NCBI RefSeq assembly: GCF_900496995.4
Contig: NC_044019.1
Location: 1,426,001-1,490,000 of the forward strand
Reading direction: 5' to 3'
From: Aquila chrysaetos chrysaetos
Lineage: Eukaryota; Chordata; Aves; Accipitriformes; Accipitridae
Length of the DNA: 64,000 nt
Position 1 is the stretch's first letter. Every line of letters starts with the position of its first letter. The position numbers and the translations under genes are program-made. The notes beneath the pieces were generated by a model, which had not been told where the DNA came from, searched no databases, and saw only the letters and a program-made list of their open reading frames with translations. This document shows, piece after piece, positions 42,051 through 52,880 of this stretch.

Positions 42051-45000
42051 TCAGAGCCGCTGGCAGTACAGTTCATACAAGCTATTTGCCAGCTTCTGTG
42101 TCTCTTGAAAAGCTTCACAGCTCTGCTCCCAACTTGGGGGTATCTGTTCCTCCCCATAATAAGCCCCTGCAATGGCTCCTGCCATGGTAGCAATGGTGTC
42201 TGTGTCTCCACCCAGAGAGATACAGTAGATGATGGTCCTCTGCAGGTTGCTGTAGTGATCAGGAATATCTGGGTCAGCTTCCATACAGCGCAAGAAGGAG
42301 TAAATTGCAGTAGGGACAGACCGCAAAGCAGCAATGCCATTGCCTGTTAACAAAACCAATCATCTTCAGTGCTGCAGAACACTTCTGTCTTCCCACAGAA
42401 GTACCTTTTCCCTTCTAACTGCAACTTCCTATTGCCAGTTACCTTCAATACCAGTGTCATTGATTTTATCATGACAAGGTGCAAAAGTCTGCACCTCAGA
42501 AATCTCCCTGCAGTTCCCTGGTACTACTCACATCCTGGAGACCAACTCCCAGCTACACCAGTACAGTTTGGTGATACACATTTACCCGTTCCCATCCAAC
42601 ATGAAGATCTGATAGCCATTAAGACAAGAGATTTTAGAATATTAAGAAATGTTATTCATGATAAGTTTTTCTTAGCAAAACATTTTTTTCCCCACCAATA
42701 CAGAGATGGAATCACTGGGTCAAGACTTGGAGAATTACTGACTGGTGAGCACAGGCAGCCTTTCCAGCACATTCTGTGCCTGACAGGCAGCAGAGGCCAA
42801 AGTGGCAATCGAGGGGAGGACACATCAAGCAGGCTTGCTGAGTTAGTGCTGCTTCCAGCTCTTTCTTAATACTTGTAGTAAGAAAGGTACTTACCTAATT
42901 CAAACAATACATCTGCTTTGGGAACACTGCTGAGCTCCAAAAATTCCTTTATTTTCTTTAGACGCCTTGAAAATGGTAAATCCTCAAATCCCAGTCTGGA
43001 AACAAAGAGTACAATGAAGAAGACAGAATGCAAAGAACCAGAATAAACTGTACACAGCAGAGTTAGTGCTCCTCACAGCCACTTACGCTCGGGCGTCAGT
43101 AAGAGACTTATCGTCTGCCTCTACATCTTCCATGTGGCTAATGAGCTGCTCCAGGAAGGTCTCCTTGCTGAGCTCTCCCTGCAGGGCGAGATGCACGGCC
43201 AGGGCCTGCAGGATGGCCCCGTTGTAGCCCAGGGAGTTGGCATGGGTTAACTCAGCACTCAGCTTCGCAAACTGCGAATGAAAACACATTTTGTGAGCAA
43301 ACCTACGTGAGAGATCACGGTGGGAGCCGCCTGACAGCAGGGGTTCCCAGAGCCGAGGCGCCCAAAGGAGCCAGGAATGGTACCTTCTTAACATCCTGGA
43401 CATCAGAATACACGAGTGAGATGCCTGCCACCCTCATGGCACCGCCATTGCCATAGGAGCCTTTCCCGTTAAACTGGGCTCTTGCTGGTTCAAACACATC
43501 ATTGCACTTGGGGCTCAGGAGCTTCTTGAAGACATTGACAACAGCCATCCCATAGCCCCTGTTGGGTTCCTTCTTGTACTCCTCAGCAAACCTGGCGTGG
43601 GCAAGAGAGCAGCAGTTATGCAGGTGAGAAAAAATACATGGGGTATTTGGTCTGTTACTGAAGTTTGTAAAGAGGTTGTATAAAGCCACCTGATAAAGTG
43701 AATTAATAACACATGGGTAATTCAGTGACAGTCAGGGTTCAAATGAGTCAGTTCTATAGGGAAAGAATCAGATTCCCAAAAATTGGTGTGAAAGGAGGAA
43801 AGGGTGTATAAACATCACCTTTCACAACCCACTTGTTTCCCTCTCAACTTTGCCTTGAAATAGGAGCAAACTGGAAACATTTCCGTGGGTCATAACCACA
43901 AAGAAAGTCTTTTGTTCAAGTTCAATGGAAGAGTTTTCTAAACAAATAAATGCTCTCCCTTAAGTGGAACCAAATGCTACCACGGCTGTGGATTCAAAAG
44001 GGAAATAGATCATAAACAAACTGAAGCTGACCTCGCTAATATTCACTAACTAAATTAAGGGAAGTACCAACATAAATAGCAACAAATAAACATGAAAGGA
44101 AATGCTTCTGAAATGTCTAAGCATTATCTTCCACAAAGGTGCATATACACACACTCGGCTGCAGTACAGCATGTCCCATCCTGCTTCATTTTAAAGCAGG
44201 CTCTGAACCCACGCTAAAGCTAACAGTACTGCACGTTCCAGGACAGTGCAAAACACACAATAAATTACATGATTAGCCATTGCTTTTCTGATTTTTTTTC
44301 CCCCACAAATTAACGACGACTTTGCCATAGCCCCTGTCCCCTTTCACAGAAAATTACAGTGACTGCTTAACGTTAAGAAGTTTTGCCTTCACTAGTAAAT
44401 GCCAACACCCTAGCCTCCAAAGCTGGCTGCAGTCCTTACCTCTTGGCCATATCCACTTCATCAAACTCTCGCTTGGCTAGCAGGGACTGCACCACCGACC
44501 TGCTCATGGCCGTGTCGTCAGTGTACGAAAGCGTTTCTAAAACAGAAGGCCAAAACATAATGTGACCGTCCAGGGACAAACTCTCCTCCTGTCCTGCTCC
44601 ACTGTCACCACTTCCCTACTCTCCAAGGCCTAATTATCTGTATGCATTACCAGAAGTTCCCCAGCACTGTGAGCTTGTCACTAGCCACAGTCATCAGAGT
44701 AAGACACAGAGCAAGAGAGATGCATCCACAGCAAGAATGAGACAGAATGCATTTCAAGATTAATAAGAGCCAAGAGGAAGTGTTTGATATCCAGAGGTGC
44801 ACACAGACAAGTAAGACAAGTCTCTTTCTCAAAGAGTCTACAGTGTACGCTGACAAGCAGAGAAGAGAAAGCGCAGTTTCGTTTCTGGACAAGGCTGCAA
44901 CAGAATCAAGTGCCTTTAAGATCCTGCTGGAAGGGTTTACAGGGCTTGCTGCACAGCTCAGAACCCCAACACAAATCCATCACCGTTTGCTAAGAGTTAA

Positions 45001-45766
45001 ATAACTCTTCTTGTGCTTGTCTTACGCTACTCCTTCTCTGTTTTTGGTACACCTGTCCCTTGCTGACACTCCCGCACTGCGATACCCCGGTTCCCAGCAC
45101 GCACCACACCCCCGGCTTCACTCGAACACAGCAAACCACAGGTTCCTCCACACCAGCCATGTGCACAAGGAACCAGGAACTGCCCTGGGGGGGGCCAGAA
45201 CCTGAGCACTGCTTCATCAAAGTCATCCTCGCCCCGCGGGGGGGGGGGGGGTGCGGGGGAAGCCAAACCCCACAGCACAGGGGCACACGCCACAGCGGGG
45301 GGCAGCCGTGGGTGTCCCAGGGGAGGTGTCCGTCGCTGAGGTGAGGGGCAGGACTGGGGGCACCCACGTTTCGGAGGGGCGGTGGGCCTGGGGGTGCGGT
45401 AGAGGCGAAGACAGGCACCCCAAAGCCCGATCCCGGGGGTGTTGGGGGCCGGGCCCGATTCTGTGGGTCCGGGGAAGGGGATGTGCTCCGGGGCCGACCC
45501 CCATCCCTCTCCCGGTGTTTCCGCCCACCTCTGCGGGCGCTGCCGGCCTGCTCCCCCTCCTCGGGCGGCCCGGACGTCGGTTCCAGGCCTCGGAGGAAAC
45601 GTAGTAAGTCGGAGAGCTTCACGACGCTCCTGCCTTCGAAAACGGCGCCCAAACAATCACCCAACAACGCCCCGGCCAAACAGCCCCGGAACCGGGCGGG
45701 TCCCGGCCGAGGCCGCGCAGCCGCCGCCCGCCCCGTCCCTGAACCCGAACCCGCCGCCGCCGCCAT
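42051..45766 (-). CDS. ADPRS: ADP-ribosylserine hydrolase (ARH3)
   Basis: This enzyme hydrolyses O-linked serine ADP-ribose and poly(ADP-ribose) in nucleus, cytosol and mitochondria, reversing PARP1/HPF1 marks after DNA damage. Six coding exons (minus strand) are 45766-45529, 44536-44440, 43591-43384, 43271-43087, 42995-42895 and 42343-42051. They total 1122 nt with consistent phases, giving 373 residues against 363 in human. The ADP-ribosylglycohydrolase fold is intact: Glu44 (human Glu41), Thr85-Asp86-Asp87 in YTDDTAM, and Asp323-Thr-Asp325-Thr326 in GGDTDTIA supply the two Mg2+-binding sites, and FNGKGSYGNGGAMR forms the substrate loop. The extra residues lie in the N-terminus and in the Gly/Pro/Glu-rich stretch around 63-79. 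The first donor is weak (G|GTGGGC). The start is the first ATG, in an Ala/Gly-rich leader as in mammals. Confidence 0.97.
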
Positions 45767-46130
45767 TTTCGCCGCCGCCGCCGCCGCTCTCCTCCGGGCC
45801 GCCAGGGGGCGGTGTCCGCGGCAAAGCCGCGGACACCGCCCCCTGGCGGCCCGGAGGAGAGCGGCGGCGGCGCAGGGCGGGAAAAAGGTGCTGGGAGGCC
45901 GCTGCCTTATTTCCCTACTTCCCGGAAGGGAAACTGTCGATTTTTTCCCCTCAATTTCTTATTTAATCCGAGAGCCAGGAGCCGGGGCGGTTACCGAACA
46001 TCATCCCCCAACCTCAGGGAAGAAGAGCAGGCCAAGTTCTGGTCTCGTCGTACGAGCAACAATCCGGCTTGTGAGGAGATCTCCCCCCCCCCCGGGGAGA
46101 ACGTGCAGTACTGGGAGCGTGCCCGGAATA
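45200..46130 (-). promoter_or_regulatory. ADPRS: CpG island spanning ADPRS exon 1 and promoter
   Basis: High CpG density covers exon 1 and several hundred bases upstream (higher coordinates), with GGGCGG/CCGCCC boxes and the large palindrome. No TATA box is evident. This is the usual architecture of a housekeeping promoter. The transcription start is not visible from sequence. Confidence 0.7.
45776..45872. repeat. perfect 47-bp inverted repeat with AAA loop at the ADPRS 5' end
   Basis: The left arm 45776-45822 and right arm 45826-45872 pair without a mismatch and are separated by three A (45823-45825). Each arm contains GCCGCCAGGGGGCGGTG, close to the CTCF core consensus, so the two motifs face each other. 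The proximal arm begins nine bases upstream of the ADPRS start codon. Such a long perfect GC palindrome is rare and unstable. It may be genuine or a fold-back sequencing or assembly artefact. Confidence 0.95.
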
Positions 46131-46488: not shown

Positions 46489-46494
46489 TTTATT
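46489..46494 (-). terminator. TEKT2: candidate poly(A) signal of TEKT2
   Basis: AATAAA on the minus strand about 200 nt after the TEKT2 stop codon, giving a short 3' UTR. Only about 360 bp separate it from the upper end of the ADPRS CpG island. Confidence 0.6.
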
Positions 46495-46690
46495 GTTCAT
46501 AATGCTCCTTGGAGTGCAAGAGGCTATAAACATCATAGAAGGGGGACAGACAGTTATATAACAGACAAGGAGGAGGGAGGAGAATTCCATTATCCTAACT
46601 CAACACAGATGTCCGCTTTCCTTGCTAAGGAACTGAGTCACTAGTAGCTTTCTCCTCAGCGCGGTTTGTTGCACAACACTCCCCGGCGCA

Positions 46691-49600
46691 CTAAGCCAAC
46701 TCCAGCTGCCCATTCTTCAGAGCGCGGTTCGTGGTCCTGTTGAAAGTGTCAACCTCTGGCACAAATTTCTCGGCAGGGACCACGAGCTTTCTCCGGCTGT
46801 CCATGCACTTGTTGTCCAGCACCAGGGAACTGGCTTTGTAGCCAGTGTCTGTCTGAATGCGGTGAAGTTGTCTGTAAAGAGCATCCAAGGCATCCCTGGG
46901 AACAAGCAGAAGTGAGAGGAGTTGGGTTCAAGCACTGCATTCACTTCCCAAGCTGGACAGGAAACAGCCCGCTTTCCACTTTCTGGCAGCAGAAATATCT
47001 GTGCAGCATTCTCCTTTGTACAAGGAACGAATGCATCAGGTATCTCTCAGTGCACAGCAGCAGCAGCGTCATTTGGGTCTGTGAACAGCAAGCCCTCGTG
47101 CTGCTCCTGGCGTGCAGCGCAAAGGTGTGCACCCTGGCAACCCACGCCAGCCCAGAGCAGCACTTCTATTTCTTCCTTTTCTTTTCACCCATTTTCTTTT
47201 TTCTCTTTTAGAACTGTCTGTGCCCGGTTGAAGTCACAGTCAAGCAAGGACCATGGTAACCTCATTCACCCTCCCACCACGCAGACCTCTGGTGCCTTGC
47301 CTGCACCCTGCTGCCCACCTGTCCAGCTCCCCACCAAGCCCCAAAACTATTTCCACTCCTGAACAGACACGAGCTCCAAAATGCAGCTTCTGGAAGTGTG
47401 CCAGGTCCAGGGCTGTACAGAGCCATGTCCCTCACATGGGCAATGCTGAGCCACTGCTCTGCACCAGAGAGCAGGAGACTTACTGTGACTCTGCTAGCTT
47501 CTGTTTGAGCGCACGGATCGTTCCCTCCAGCTGGTGAACCTCATCTGTTAGCCCGTATTGGACCTGCGAGGCAGGCAGGGAGAAGGTGACAGCAGTTAAC
47601 AGGGCTGAAGCGTTCTATAAAGGCTGCGGTTCTCTCATTCCCCTTCTAGCCCAACTATGACATTTATTTCCTTGCTTTGCTAGGTGACTGCAGGATCCAC
47701 TGCTCAGCCCCTCTGTAGTTTTCTCCAAAATGCATCCACGTTTTCCAGACCCACAGCAGCCCCCATACCAGACAGTTCCCCCCAGTCCCTCCTGGCAGGG
47801 AGCGTGCCGGGCAAGGCTGGTACCTGATCCCTACAGAGCTCCATATTGGGCCGATACGTGCGGGTCTCCAGGCGGGTGTGTGCCACTTTCAGATCTTGCG
47901 TTTTCCTCCGAAGATCTTCCTCCAAGCGTCGGATGTCCTCCTCCATCTCAGCAATTTCCTCCAAGGACTAAGGATAAAGAGATGTATCATGAGGGACAGG
48001 CAGGGATACAGACCAGAAAACAGCCCCCATGCATCCTCAGCTTTTACTGCGCTGGGAATGGATTTTAAACAAGGGCTGGTGGGCTTCTGAGTACTGAACC
48101 CCTCTGCCATAGATCGGGCTTTTCACACGGTCCAGGCATGGTGCTGCTGGTGTTTTATGGCCACAGCAGCTGAGACCAGGGGTGAAATGAAAAGGCCAAA
48201 ACCCGGCACTGCTGCTGAGAAATGGCAGAGCAGCAGCTGTGCTAGCAGAAAGAGATAGGATGTTGCAGGGATCATACATGTGCCACTTAACAGCTCTCAT
48301 GTGGTAACCATGCTCAGGCCAAGTAGCCTTCCACATAACAAAGAGCCTTTTGGATTCAATTCCCACCCAAGGTTGTGGTCAATAACCAAAGAAGCAACAT
48401 TTACATTCTGCTCCTGCCATTTCAGTTCGTCATAGGCTCTTTCCAGGTCTCTAATCCTCTTGCGCAAGGCAAACTCTGTAGCTACACGCTGAGCCTCCAG
48501 CTCGTTGTTTGTCTGAAGAGAGAACAGGCTCCAGTCACACACTTCTGGAAGGTGTCTCCCTCCCAGCTGCTGCCTGTGAGGTTGGGACAAGCCTATGAGC
48601 AAAACCAGCTGGATTCTGGCAGCTGTGATGGACAGGTATGTGTCTTCCAGGTTGCTGAGACTGCTGCAAGCTCTGCAGCATAATCCAGCTCCTCCTTTAA
48701 ACCAGGAGGGCAGCTGCTCTCAGAGAGGCCTGTGGGCCAATGCCATCTTTTCAAAGACTCCCTTCCCCTGGCTGCAGCACGTGCCAGCCCATGCTCCCAC
48801 ACTGAATCCAGAACTTCTGCACGACCGATTCAGAGCCAAGGGACTAATTTACCTGTGCGATGGCAAGCACTGTTGCTTCTCGGAGCTCAGTTGAAGCTTT
48901 CATTTCTGCCTCAGCACGCTCCTTGTTGCATTGGCTATTCTGTTCCCACTCATCAAGTGCAGTTGATCTGCAAACAAATCAGCAGTTATGAAAATAAGTT
49001 GAATGTTTGCAAGACAGTTCAAAAGGAACCACCTGCTGCAGGCCAAGAAGGCTTTGTGGAGTACAAAATGATTCAGGATTTCTGGAGGTCACATCCTGTC
49101 TGATCTCCTCACTGCACCAGCTGGAGATTGCTACCCCATGGCTCCTGCACTGAGCCCAACATCTGCTCAAACTGGGGACACAGCCAAACCATGCTATGAA
49201 ATGCCAAGCAAGTGAAAATGTGCAGCAGCTCCCCCATAAGCTGTGCCAAAGGCCGATACCACGCTGCTTACTGTCACCTTTAGCCAAGCACAAGGGAGGC
49301 TAGCTTCTCTGTTTTTGTGGTGACAATTCAGATAACTCCCAAAAGCCTGTGGCTTCACAACTCAAGAGCCACGATAAATCCCAGAAGCCAACTTCTGTTC
49401 TGAGCTCTCTCCAAAACTGCACCCATCGAGCCAGGGTATAGCATGGAAGGAAAAAGCATCCCAGGGCTCTTTCAAGCACCAGCACAGATTTGGCCACACA
49501 AGGGCAGGCTTTTTCCTTACCCATCTGGGACTCGTGTTGGGTTGACCTTGAAGGAGATGTTGGGAGAGTTTACATTGAGGGATAAGCACACGCGATCTAT

Positions 49601-51665
49601 TTCCAATGCTTCCATCTTGCACCGGTGGTCACAGCTCAGCTGCTGGTGAGCTTCCTGTAAGAGGCTGCAGAAAGCAGGGTTGGAGTCAGTGGCAAGCACG
49701 CAGAGGGGAGAGGCAGCTCACCACTTCCAAAGCTTTCATCACCACCTCAGTCATCTTTTTAAAATGAGTGATGAGCTCCTGCCCTCCCAGTGAACTGGGC
49801 CCAAGTTGATAAAGCAGCACACCTGCTTTACTGCCTGCCTGGCTCCCCCGTGCCCTGCTCTGGCATCACACCGGTGAACTGAGCTGCCTGCCCTCCTGCA
49901 GCGGGGTAGTGATCCACAAGGGATTAGGGCCTGGGAGCTTTAACCACTCCCGGTCACTCATTCATGAACCAAGGCAGGTGGCACAAGGTATCTGCCCAGG
50001 CCAAAATTTTCCACGGATGCTTATGAAGTCTCCCTTGACATGCTCTCCCCTACAAACCCCCAAGCCCATAGACCTTGACAACAATCATCAGCGTGGCATT
50101 AGAAGCACATTAAACTGCTGGGGCCAAGCAAGGAGGGCACAGTCCAGTCAAAAGCTGTGTCATTCGCCTCACCAGAGCTGTTCGAAGGCTTCGTTCACTC
50201 TCTGCTGCAGCTGTCTCTTGGCTTTGTCTATCACCTTCACCTCCTTGTGCAGCTCCTCCTCCACAGGGTCCCTCACCACATCAATGGCGCGGCGGCTCTC
50301 ACGGAGCGTCAGGCACTCGATGGACACATCCAAGGGCAAGTTCTTTGCCTGGAGGGCACGTTCTGCTGCTTCCTTCACCTGGAAGAAGCAGGCAGCTGAG
50401 TGTGTGTGGGGTCTCCTTCAGGGATGGGAGGAAGAAAGGAAGGGGAAACCACGGATACCCTTCTCAAGAGGGCCTCACACTGCCTGTCTTTGCAGTTCTG
50501 AAACCTTTTAGCAAGTCTGGAATGAAAATTGCGAGAGCCAAACGCATTAGTCCTCTACATCTGCTATTTGCATTGGGAATCACACCTTGTTGGGGGCTAA
50601 CGACTCCAGGAGCAGCAGCCTCTGGGTTTAGAACTAAAAGAATCAGAGAGATGTCCCACTGCTATTCTCTATTTAAAATCAAACATTTTTGATGGTGTTA
50701 ACATATTTCTCGTTATCCTTCAGAGCTTTAAAAAACCAACCAACCAAAACAAAACAAAACGTACCCAAACACGAGCGTGCAACACACAGCTCCATAAAAT
50801 GGCTTGGCTCAGCCAAGAACACAGTGGTTTGCTTTCCAGGAAGTCATTTCATCAGGTATGATCTCAGTGTACCTGTGATAAGCCCCCCTTGAACTCCATA
50901 TGGGCTCGCCCATTTCAGAAGACAAGCCTCAATTATTTAACATCCCATGTTGAGAGCGTAAGTTGATTTCCAGCCATCTGTCTTCCCAACATACTTTGGC
51001 TAAGGCATCGATTTCCGCATCTATGTCTGCAAGGCATTTGTCCAGGGTCTCTTTCCATCTGTTCACGCTGCTGATACGTTCAGCCAGGCGGGTTTGGTTG
51101 TCGTGCTCATCCCATTTCGTCTGGAATTAGAGGAGAAACGCCATTACTTTTTTTTAAATTGCAATTGTGAATCTTGCTGAAGCCTTTCCCTGTTTTCAGG
51201 ATTGACTGACCCCTCAGAGGAGTACATCACGTTGCCATTTCGTCTAATAGTCACCTACACAAATGGAGAGCACAGAAAACAATTCAGGTTGCAACAGACA
51301 CAAGAATCACACCCAGGGATTTCATGACAGTACGCATGCATCATCGCACATGGGTTTAGAGGAAGTAAATGTACATACTTAGCAGGTTCTGTAGAGGTAA
51401 AGCCTTTTCCTATTCCCTTGTGCGTGCAGCCAGATCTAGACACTCTCCCATACTCCTCAGCCCGCTATTCTGACAAACCCAGGAGCAGCCAAGCTGCCAG
51501 AAGGCCCACCTGGTTGTTGGTTTCGTTGCGGAGAGCTCGGGCTTCCTGCCGGACTTGGTGGGAAGCAGAACGCTGGCGTTCAGCGTCAGCTGAGATGAGA
51601 TGGGAGTTGGTGTGCCAGTCCGGCAAGGTGAACCGCTGTCCTGGCTTTACACTCAGTGCAGTCAT
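46691..51665 (-). CDS. TEKT2: tektin-2
   Basis: A coiled-coil filament protein inside the A-tubule of ciliary and sperm-flagellar doublet microtubules, needed for inner dynein arm function and motility. Nine coding exons (minus strand) are 51665-51510, 51120-50995, 50378-50173, 49664-49521, 48967-48853, 48512-48405, 47967-47824, 47563-47484 and 46895-46691. The total is 1284 nt with all phases matching, giving 427 residues against 430 in human. Seen: N-terminal VKPGQRFTLPDWHTNS, long heptad-like helical segments throughout, the loop QAKNLPLDVSIECLTLRESR, and the tektin nonapeptide as RPNMELCRD (residues 324-332). The C-terminus ends QLELA. The ATG 16 nt after an acceptor (exon starting at 51681) matches the mammalian start. 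An in-frame ATG upstream of it would read through intron sequence. At least one non-coding 5' exon lies further upstream. Confidence 0.97.
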
Positions 51666-52149: not shown

Positions 52150-52880
52150 ACGGCTCAACAGGACCAGAGCAGCTCCTGAGCAGACCGCGGCTCCCCAAAA
52201 CCCCCCAGTCAGGCGGAGTTCTGGGGCAGACAGACCAGGTACCCCCCACGCCAGCCCCCCAGTCCTCTCGGGCGCAGGCAGTCGGGGACCGAGCTCCTTG
52301 AGCGCGGCCGCCTGCGCCAAAGGCCGCTGGGGAAGAGAAGCCAGGGAACTCCTCGAGGGAAGGCAGGCCCGCAGGCCGGACTTGGGGCTGCAGAGCCACG
52401 GAGAACGCCCGACCCCCCGGTGGAAAGGGAACGGGGGACACGCTCGCACTCACAGGGAAAGGGGCTCACCCCCCCGGCTCGGAGGGGCCCTCACCCCTGG
52501 CCGGGCGCAGGCAGCCCCGAGCGGGGTGTCCCAGCTCCTCCGGGCCGGGGCCCTGCTGCTCCCTCGGGGCACAGACCCTCCCCGACCGGGTCCCGGTCCC
52601 GGTCCCCGTCCCGGTCCCGTTCCCCTCACCGCCTCGGGGCCGTTCCCACCGCCGGGCCGGTTGCCAGGCACGCGCGGGCCCGTTGCGAGGCGGCGGGGGG
52701 GGGGGGGGGGGGCCCCCCCCCCCCCCCCCCCCCCCCCCGGACACCCCCACGGGTGGGTGACCGAGCCGGCGGGGCCGCAGCGGGGCGGCTTGTCTCCTTA
52801 TCGCAGTTCGGAGGGGAGGGGAGAGCGCAGGCTGGCGCAGAGCGACAGCAAAGGCGGTTGGTGTTGGTGGCATTACTAAA
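52150..52880 (-). promoter_or_regulatory. TEKT2: CpG island, likely TEKT2 promoter
   Basis: CpG- and GC-box-rich DNA sits about 0.5-1.2 kb upstream of the TEKT2 start codon, between TEKT2 and the putative AGO3 3' end. It contains CCCGGTCCCGGTCC iterations (about 52585-52620) and a G18-C26 homopolymer pair. No coding exon is recognised, and long open frames here are GC artefacts. Confidence 0.6.
52695..52738. repeat. G18 run directly followed by C26 run
   Basis: Eighteen G (52695-52712) are followed immediately by twenty-six C (52713-52738). The junction is self-complementary and would form an 18-bp G:C stem with no loop. Such a structure is very hard to sequence, so length and even existence are uncertain. 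Confidence 0.9.

What the first reader, a model, noticed from the sequence alone, without database searches (positions are those of the whole stretch)
45776..45872. Perfect 47-bp palindrome with 3-nt loop abutting the ADPRS start codon, with facing CTCF-like motifs
Base-by-base pairing shows 47 of 47 matches between 45776-45822 and 45826-45872, with an AAA loop. Perfect GC-rich hairpins of this size are rarely tolerated in genomes. If transcribed in the 5' UTR it would block ribosome scanning, so the transcription start would have to lie inside or below it. Each arm holds GCCGCCAGGGGGCGGTG, resembling the CTCF core, in convergent orientation between ADPRS and TEKT2. That could be a boundary element or a recent inverted duplication. 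A fold-back library artefact is a serious alternative.
Basis: partly seen in the sequence, partly recalled or inferred. Interest (0 to 1): 0.75.

Follow-up and report, generated by a model that had tools for sequence, protein, structure and literature searches.

The report
Perfect palindrome of paired CTCF-like sites
Just in front of a bird's ADPRS gene lies a perfect 47-base DNA hairpin with a strong CTCF-like site in each arm; other birds carry the same facing pair of sites, so it looks like an old promoter element whose two arms were later copied into exact mirror images rather than a simple sequencing error.

Summary
In detail: 47 of 47 paired bases, AAA loop, arms 87% GC, base 9 nt above the ADPRS ATG. 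The window lies in a 1.23 Gb bird-like assembly. Each arm holds a CTCF-type site of 18.7 bits (matrix recalled); the next best in 64 kb is 13.3. New evidence: ORFs of other birds run through the same place. In three of four informative ones a forward site at -91/-92 and a reverse site at -46/-47 nt from the ATG reappear (window -86/-48; 0 of 1000 shuffles each; fourth 6 of 1000). In one (P0005) the inverted repeat extends beyond the sites (33 of 34 compatible, spacer 24 nt, 0 of 1000); in the other three it does not. So a simple fold-back artefact is unlikely: the pair is old, the perfection probably later, by template-switch copying between arms. The ATG has a YY1/TISU-like context, so transcription probably starts at or below the hairpin. 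A second perfect promoter palindrome (46-bp arms, two 18.8-bit sites, 13 nt from an ATG) lies on another contig. CTCF binding, start site and read support are untested.

The parts
45776..45822 (+). ADPRS-proximal arm of the palindrome (47 bp)
   Evidence: 47/47 complementary to the other arm; compatible with the proximal arm of P0005 at 40 of 41 positions
45823..45825 (.). loop AAA
45826..45872 (-). distal arm of the palindrome (47 bp)
   Evidence: the same sequence is compatible with P0005's distal arm at 37 of 41 positions
45796..45814 (+). CTCF-type site GGGCCGCCAGGGGGCGGTG in the proximal arm
   Evidence: 18.74 bits, matrix recalled; the 19-mer occurs exactly only twice in the genome, both here; reverse-oriented site at -46/-47 nt in P0005, P0014, P0011
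45834..45852 (-). CTCF-type site in the distal arm, facing the first
   Evidence: 18.74 bits; forward-oriented site at -91/-92 nt in P0005, P0014, P0011
45767..45775 (-). nine bases between hairpin base and ATG
   Evidence: sequence
45759..45769 (-). YY1/TISU-like AAAATGGCGGC over the start codon (ATG 45766-45764)
   Evidence: pattern match; AAR before the ATG in 5 of 5 bird ORFs that reach above it
45877..45884 (-). E2F-like TTTCCCGC just above the hairpin (consensus recalled)
   Evidence: pattern match
45922..45928 (+). ETS-like CCGGAAG (consensus recalled)
   Evidence: pattern match
42054..45766 (-). ADPRS (ARH3) gene from ATG to last exon seen
   Evidence: Pfam PF03747 in three ORF pieces, one of them 0.1 bit below the cut-off; PDB ARH3 matches for exon 1 and an inner exon
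46489..50417 (-). TEKT2-like gene: Tektin exons 46694-50417 and AATAAA at 46489-46494
   Evidence: Pfam PF03148 in three ORF pieces, one above the cut-off and two below it

Best explanation
It is a real promoter element: a facing pair of CTCF-type sites that belongs to the bird ADPRS promoter and, in this species, has become a perfect palindrome. (1) Shown at motif level: in other birds too a facing pair lies about 30-90 nt above the ATG, and in one of them the arms match well beyond the sites. (2) Inferred: during replication the nascent strand folded back on this imperfect repeat, copied the ADPRS-proximal arm over the distal one and altered the spacer, leaving 47 identical bp around 3 nt (quasipalindrome-to-palindrome template switching). 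(3) Inferred: CTCF occupies the pair as a clustered two-site promoter element (2xCTS type), keeps the short gap between TEKT2 and ADPRS open and separates the two genes. (4) Inferred: transcription starts at or below the hairpin and the TISU/YY1-like start codon initiates from a very short leader, so the hairpin is promoter DNA and does not block ribosomes.
For: Facing pair at -91/-46 (P0005), -91/-47 (P0014), -92/-47 (P0011) against -86/-48 here; 0 of 1000 shuffles each. P0005: inverted repeat 33 of 34 compatible, 0 of 1000 shuffles. Proximal arm the better match to P0005, 40 against 37 of 41. Unique sequence on both flanks and one copy in the genome, as a two-switch event would leave. Facing 10-mer cores 10-40 bp apart occur only here in the genome. 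Template switching is reported to homogenise arms and make perfect hairpins (PMC8604942; PMC8794818; PMC7954356). 2xCTS elements sit at active promoters, with an opposed pair in the TP53 promoter (PMC4562119). AAR-ATG in 5 of 5 upstream-reaching bird ORFs; TISU leaders have a median of 12 nt (PMC2518114).
Against: No reads, CTCF occupancy or start-site data. The comparison rests on translated ORFs with codon ambiguity and a matrix from memory. The repeat beyond the sites is not detectable in P0014, P0011 or P0008 (243, 395 and 854 of 1000 shuffles). The pair in P0008 is weaker (6 of 1000) and lies at other distances. P0005, P0011 and P0008 are unnamed, and P0011 and P0014 are both passerine-like. 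The donor/recipient difference is three positions. The nearest hit P0001 has identical exon 1 but different codons just above the ATG (MEK-M), and whether it has the palindrome cannot be seen. Up to two mismatches the 19-mer is little above its reversed control (92 against 76), and short facing or opposed cores are not enriched (14 against 17 and 16 against 13).
Confidence: 0.6

Rival explanations
1. Assembly or library artefact: the exact identity of the arms (or one whole arm) was made by fold-back synthesis or consensus errors in an extremely GC-rich stretch.
For: The arms are 87% GC and perfect; a second perfect palindrome of nearly the same arm length exists in the same assembly, which could reflect a shared technical cause; no reads could be seen.
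Against: The facing pair recurs at nearly the same distances in three other ORFs and the repeat in one. Both flanks are unique and in gene order, which one fold-back does not give. 264 kb around it and 20 one-kb GC-rich stretches show no other such hairpin.
Confidence: 0.17
2. Neutral fold-back scar: a template switch made the palindrome, and the CTCF-like motif is only GC-rich promoter sequence that happened to lie in it, without binding or function.
For: Short CTCF-like core pairs are not enriched in the genome, and the 19-mer is only slightly above its control up to two mismatches.
Against: In passerine-like ORFs the repeat beyond the sites is gone while both sites remain, as expected if the sites and not the symmetry are kept.
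Confidence: 0.17
3. Functional RNA hairpin in the ADPRS 5' leader (translation block, Dicer substrate or the like).
For: The hairpin is next to the ATG; the RNA stem alone would fold at -126.2 kcal/mol.
Against: No Rfam match in the window at gathering thresholds. The stem beyond the sites is not kept in three of four ORFs. The start-codon context fits a very short leader.
Confidence: 0.05

Closest known systems
Clustered CTCF target sites at promoters (2xCTS), such as the opposed pair in the TP53 promoter (PMC4562119, PMC5973138; passages)
   Same: Two strong CTCF-type motifs 38 bp apart, in opposite orientation, at a CpG-island promoter
   Different: Here both sites lie in a perfect 47-bp palindrome; no occupancy data; BORIS/CTCFL not examined
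Template-switch (quasipalindrome-to-palindrome) mutations (PMC8604942, PMC8794818, PMC7954356)
   Same: Perfect inverted repeat with short loop, unique flanks, an imperfect version in another lineage
   Different: 47-bp arms are longer than the 16-bp example seen in yeast and the great-ape median of 12 nt, though below the great-ape maximum of 128; it carries a pair of regulatory sites; no ancestral reconstruction was possible
TISU / YY1 start-codon element (PMC2518114; passages)
   Same: AARATGGCGGC over the start codon, AAR kept in the bird ORFs that show it
   Different: Base -1 is A here, where the passages show AAGAUGG; leader length not measured

Membership tests
2xCTS (clustered CTCF sites) | two CTCF motifs less than 100 bp apart | tested here: met
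   two 18.74-bit sites 38 bp apart (matrix recalled); spacing rule from PMC5973138
2xCTS (clustered CTCF sites) | occupied by CTCF and/or BORIS at an active promoter | not testable with these tools
   no ChIP or expression data at hand
Template-switch palindrome | perfect inverted repeat between unique flanks | tested here: met
   47/47; single place in the genome
Template-switch palindrome | imperfect ancestral form overwritten by one arm | tested here: inconclusive
   imperfect repeat in P0005; arm match 40 against 37 of 41; no tree, no DNA of relatives
TISU | AAGATGGCGGC-type sequence over the start codon | tested here: inconclusive
   AAAATGGCGGC at 45759-45769; base -1 differs from the AAGAUGG shown in the paper
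TISU | very short 5' leader (median 12 nt) | not testable with these tools
   no CAGE or RACE

The most novel reading that the evidence does not exclude
Opposed CTCF sites in bird promoters act as seeds for fold-back copying: template switching between the two sites repeatedly rebuilds long perfect palindromes right at start codons, so the two sites evolve in concert. ADPRS (47-bp arms, 9 nt from the ATG) and a second gene on another contig (46-bp arms, 13 nt from an ATG, two 18.8-bit sites) would be two instances of one process that makes and maintains paired CTCF elements.
Probability: 0.22. Interest if true: 0.72.

Novelty: new variant of a known kind. Interest (0 to 1): 0.52.

Why it matters
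If real, it shows a way in which a paired CTCF promoter element can be kept as two matching sites by a mutation process, not only by selection on each site. It also puts a very strong DNA hairpin at the start codon of a broadly used gene, where one would expect trouble for polymerases, and so makes testable where transcription starts relative to it and whether CTCF occupancy protects it.

Tried and rejected
Rfam at gathering thresholds: no match in the window. Pfam on the exon-1 piece: no family; exon 1 was tied to ARH3 through the PDB. A protein search with the upstream part of P0005 returned P0005 and P0003 only, one with P0014 returned itself only, so no further upstream sequences were gained. 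The mammal-like ORF P0031 shows no comparable pair (best forward 13.0, best reverse 14.6). Enrichment of short facing or opposed cores genome-wide was tested and not found (14 places against 17 in the control; 16 against 13). Of these 30 pairs two are perfect palindromes, one being the ADPRS element itself. Tandem 10-mer cores: 18 rows against 3 in the control, in 5 clusters, most of the rows in tandem repeats. Divergent 10-mer cores: 0, control 1 in each direction. An inverted GCC pattern: 644 places against 539 in the control; only the first places are printed (about 30 distinct loci by my count by eye), and in none of those do the two strands read alike, so this samples a small part of the 644. 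No paper on this promoter was seen in searches (listings only); that covers the held library alone.

Not obtained: orthologous bird DNA (the genome 'has no relatives here', and the other collections hold no animals), reads, CAGE, ChIP, and a whole-genome scan for inverted repeats.

Full report
WHAT IS THERE. The palindrome is as described: 45776-45822 and 45826-45872 are reverse complements at 47 of 47 positions around AAA, with arms of 87% GC. Thirty Markov simulations of the local 1.5 kb gave no arm above 9 bp. In 264 kb (window plus 200 kb of flank) every other perfect hairpin with an arm above 15 bp and a loop up to 100 nt is a pair of G/C or GCC runs. Folded as DNA, 161 nt around it reach -94.1 kcal/mol against a shuffle mean of -50.4. 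Perfect arms of this length are known elsewhere: PMC13155455 gives 140 bp as the longest in human (passages).

WHERE. The window is C16:1426001-1490000 of a 1.23 Gb assembly in 144 contigs with no relatives held. The hits to bird proteins make it a bird; the contig lengths remind me of an eagle-type assembly, which is recall and not a result. ADPRS runs on the minus strand from its ATG at 45766-45764. A TEKT2-like gene on the same strand ends upstream, with Tektin matches from 46694 on (one of three above the Pfam cut-off) and an AATAAA at 46489-46494. The hairpin base is 9 nt above the ATG in CpG-rich sequence (45700-45900: GC 0.81, CpG observed/expected 1.03).

THE MOTIFS. One simulated Mb gave 2 sites of 18 bits or more at window composition and 8 at local composition. 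The 19-mer occurs exactly in the genome only in these two arms, and two facing CCAGGGGGCG cores 10-40 bp apart occur only here. Against a simple CTCF story: up to two mismatches the 19-mer has 92 places against 76 for the reversed control, and shorter facing or opposed cores are not enriched (14 against 17; 16 against 13).

OTHER BIRDS. The decisive comparison came from a protein search with the open frame that runs through the hairpin into exon 1 (31 hits). Five bird-like hits extend above the conserved start: P0001, P0005, P0008, P0011, P0014. P0001 extends by three residues only, so four are informative. For each I scored the best CTCF site that its codons allow. P0005 has a forward site at -91 and a reverse one at -46, P0014 at -91 and -47, P0011 at -92 and -47; the window has -86 and -48. 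In 1000 shuffles of the 50 upstream residues none gave as good a facing pair for these three; for P0008 (-113, -62) 6 did. A mammal-like ORF, P0031, shows none. P0014 is named (Passeriformes); P0005, P0008 and P0011 are unnamed, and P0011 looks passerine, so it and P0014 are not independent lineages.

THE REPEAT ITSELF. In P0005 the two arms are compatible at 33 of 34 positions around a 24-nt spacer, well beyond the motif; its score of 33.0 exceeds all 1000 shuffles (maximum 25.2). In P0014, P0011 and P0008 the repeat is not distinguishable from shuffles (243, 395 and 854 of 1000). P0005's exon 1 is 86% identical to the window's, against 90% for hamerkop (partial), 89% for spotted owl and 88% for hoatzin, so it is hardly a close relative. 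The window arm is compatible with P0005's proximal arm at 40 of 41 positions and with its distal arm at 37 of 41: a weak sign that the proximal arm was copied over the distal one. P0001, with identical exon 1 (79 of 79), starts MEKM, so the six bases above its AAR-ATG differ from the window's; whether it carries the palindrome cannot be seen.

HOW IT PROBABLY AROSE. Template switching between imperfect inverted repeats is reported to homogenise arms and to make perfect hairpins: PMC8604942 (passages), PMC8794818 (abstract and one section), PMC7954356 (passages; copied length median 12, maximum 128 nt in great apes). It needs two switches and leaves unique flanks, as here; a single fold-back does not.

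HOW IT PROBABLY WORKS. Clustered CTCF sites less than 100 bp apart mark active promoters, and the TP53 promoter carries an opposed pair (PMC4562119 and PMC5973138, passages). The ADPRS pair has that layout. As RNA the stem alone would fold at -126.2 kcal/mol; a transcript running 90 nt into the coding region folds at -180.0 from 45872 and at -84.8 from 45822. The ATG lies in AAAATGGCGGC, and AAR precedes the ATG in 5 of 5 bird ORFs that reach above it, but not in the two mammal-like ones. TISU start codons serve leaders of median 12 nt (PMC2518114, passages). So I place the start site at or below the hairpin; this is inference.

A SECOND CASE. Of 16 opposed and 14 facing CAGGGGGC pairs, two are perfect palindromes: ADPRS, and C12:23104519-23104610, with 46-bp arms, no loop, two 18.8-bit sites, and an ATG 13 nt on that opens MLELALEELSALAAIYCEP (RWDD-like by recall). 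It was found through a CTCF-like pair pattern, so it does not show that palindromes prefer CTCF sites. Twenty 1-kb stretches (18 around CTCF-like places, one each) have no perfect arm above 13 bp with loops up to 60.

VERDICT. Most likely a real, conserved, paired CTCF-type promoter element whose perfect symmetry came later. It is interesting as a link between fold-back mutation and paired CTCF sites; occupancy, start site and read support are missing.

Noticed in passing
L031 (G000:C12:23104519-23104610): A second perfect palindrome, 92 bp without loop, with two 18.8-bit CTCF-like sites pointing away from each other, 13 nt above an ATG of an RWDD-like gene.
   Followed up: partly
L004 1453-1516 (G000:C10 near 39107800): Three strong CTCF-like sites within 64 bp (16.3 and 17.5 forward, 19.0 reverse), with an 11-bp perfect hairpin between the last two.
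   Followed up: partly
window 52694-52739: A run of 18 G followed directly by 26 C, an unusual homopolymer inverted pair.
   Followed up: no
G000:C16:1387225-1387358 (about 39 kb left of the window): 25-bp perfect inverted repeat built on a G run and a C run of equal length, 84 nt apart.
   Followed up: no
window 45764-45958, minus strand: The frame above the ADPRS ATG stays open through the whole hairpin up to 45958 without another ATG.
   Followed up: yes
P0001 (protein from an unnamed contig of 1054 bp): Exon 1 identical to the window (79 of 79) but the codons above the ATG differ (MEK-M); the sequence above could not be seen.
   Followed up: partly
G000:C13:40370996-40371152 and G000:C90:775247-775557: Tandem repeats with periods of 21 and 43 bp whose units carry CCAGGGGGCGGGG.
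   Followed up: no
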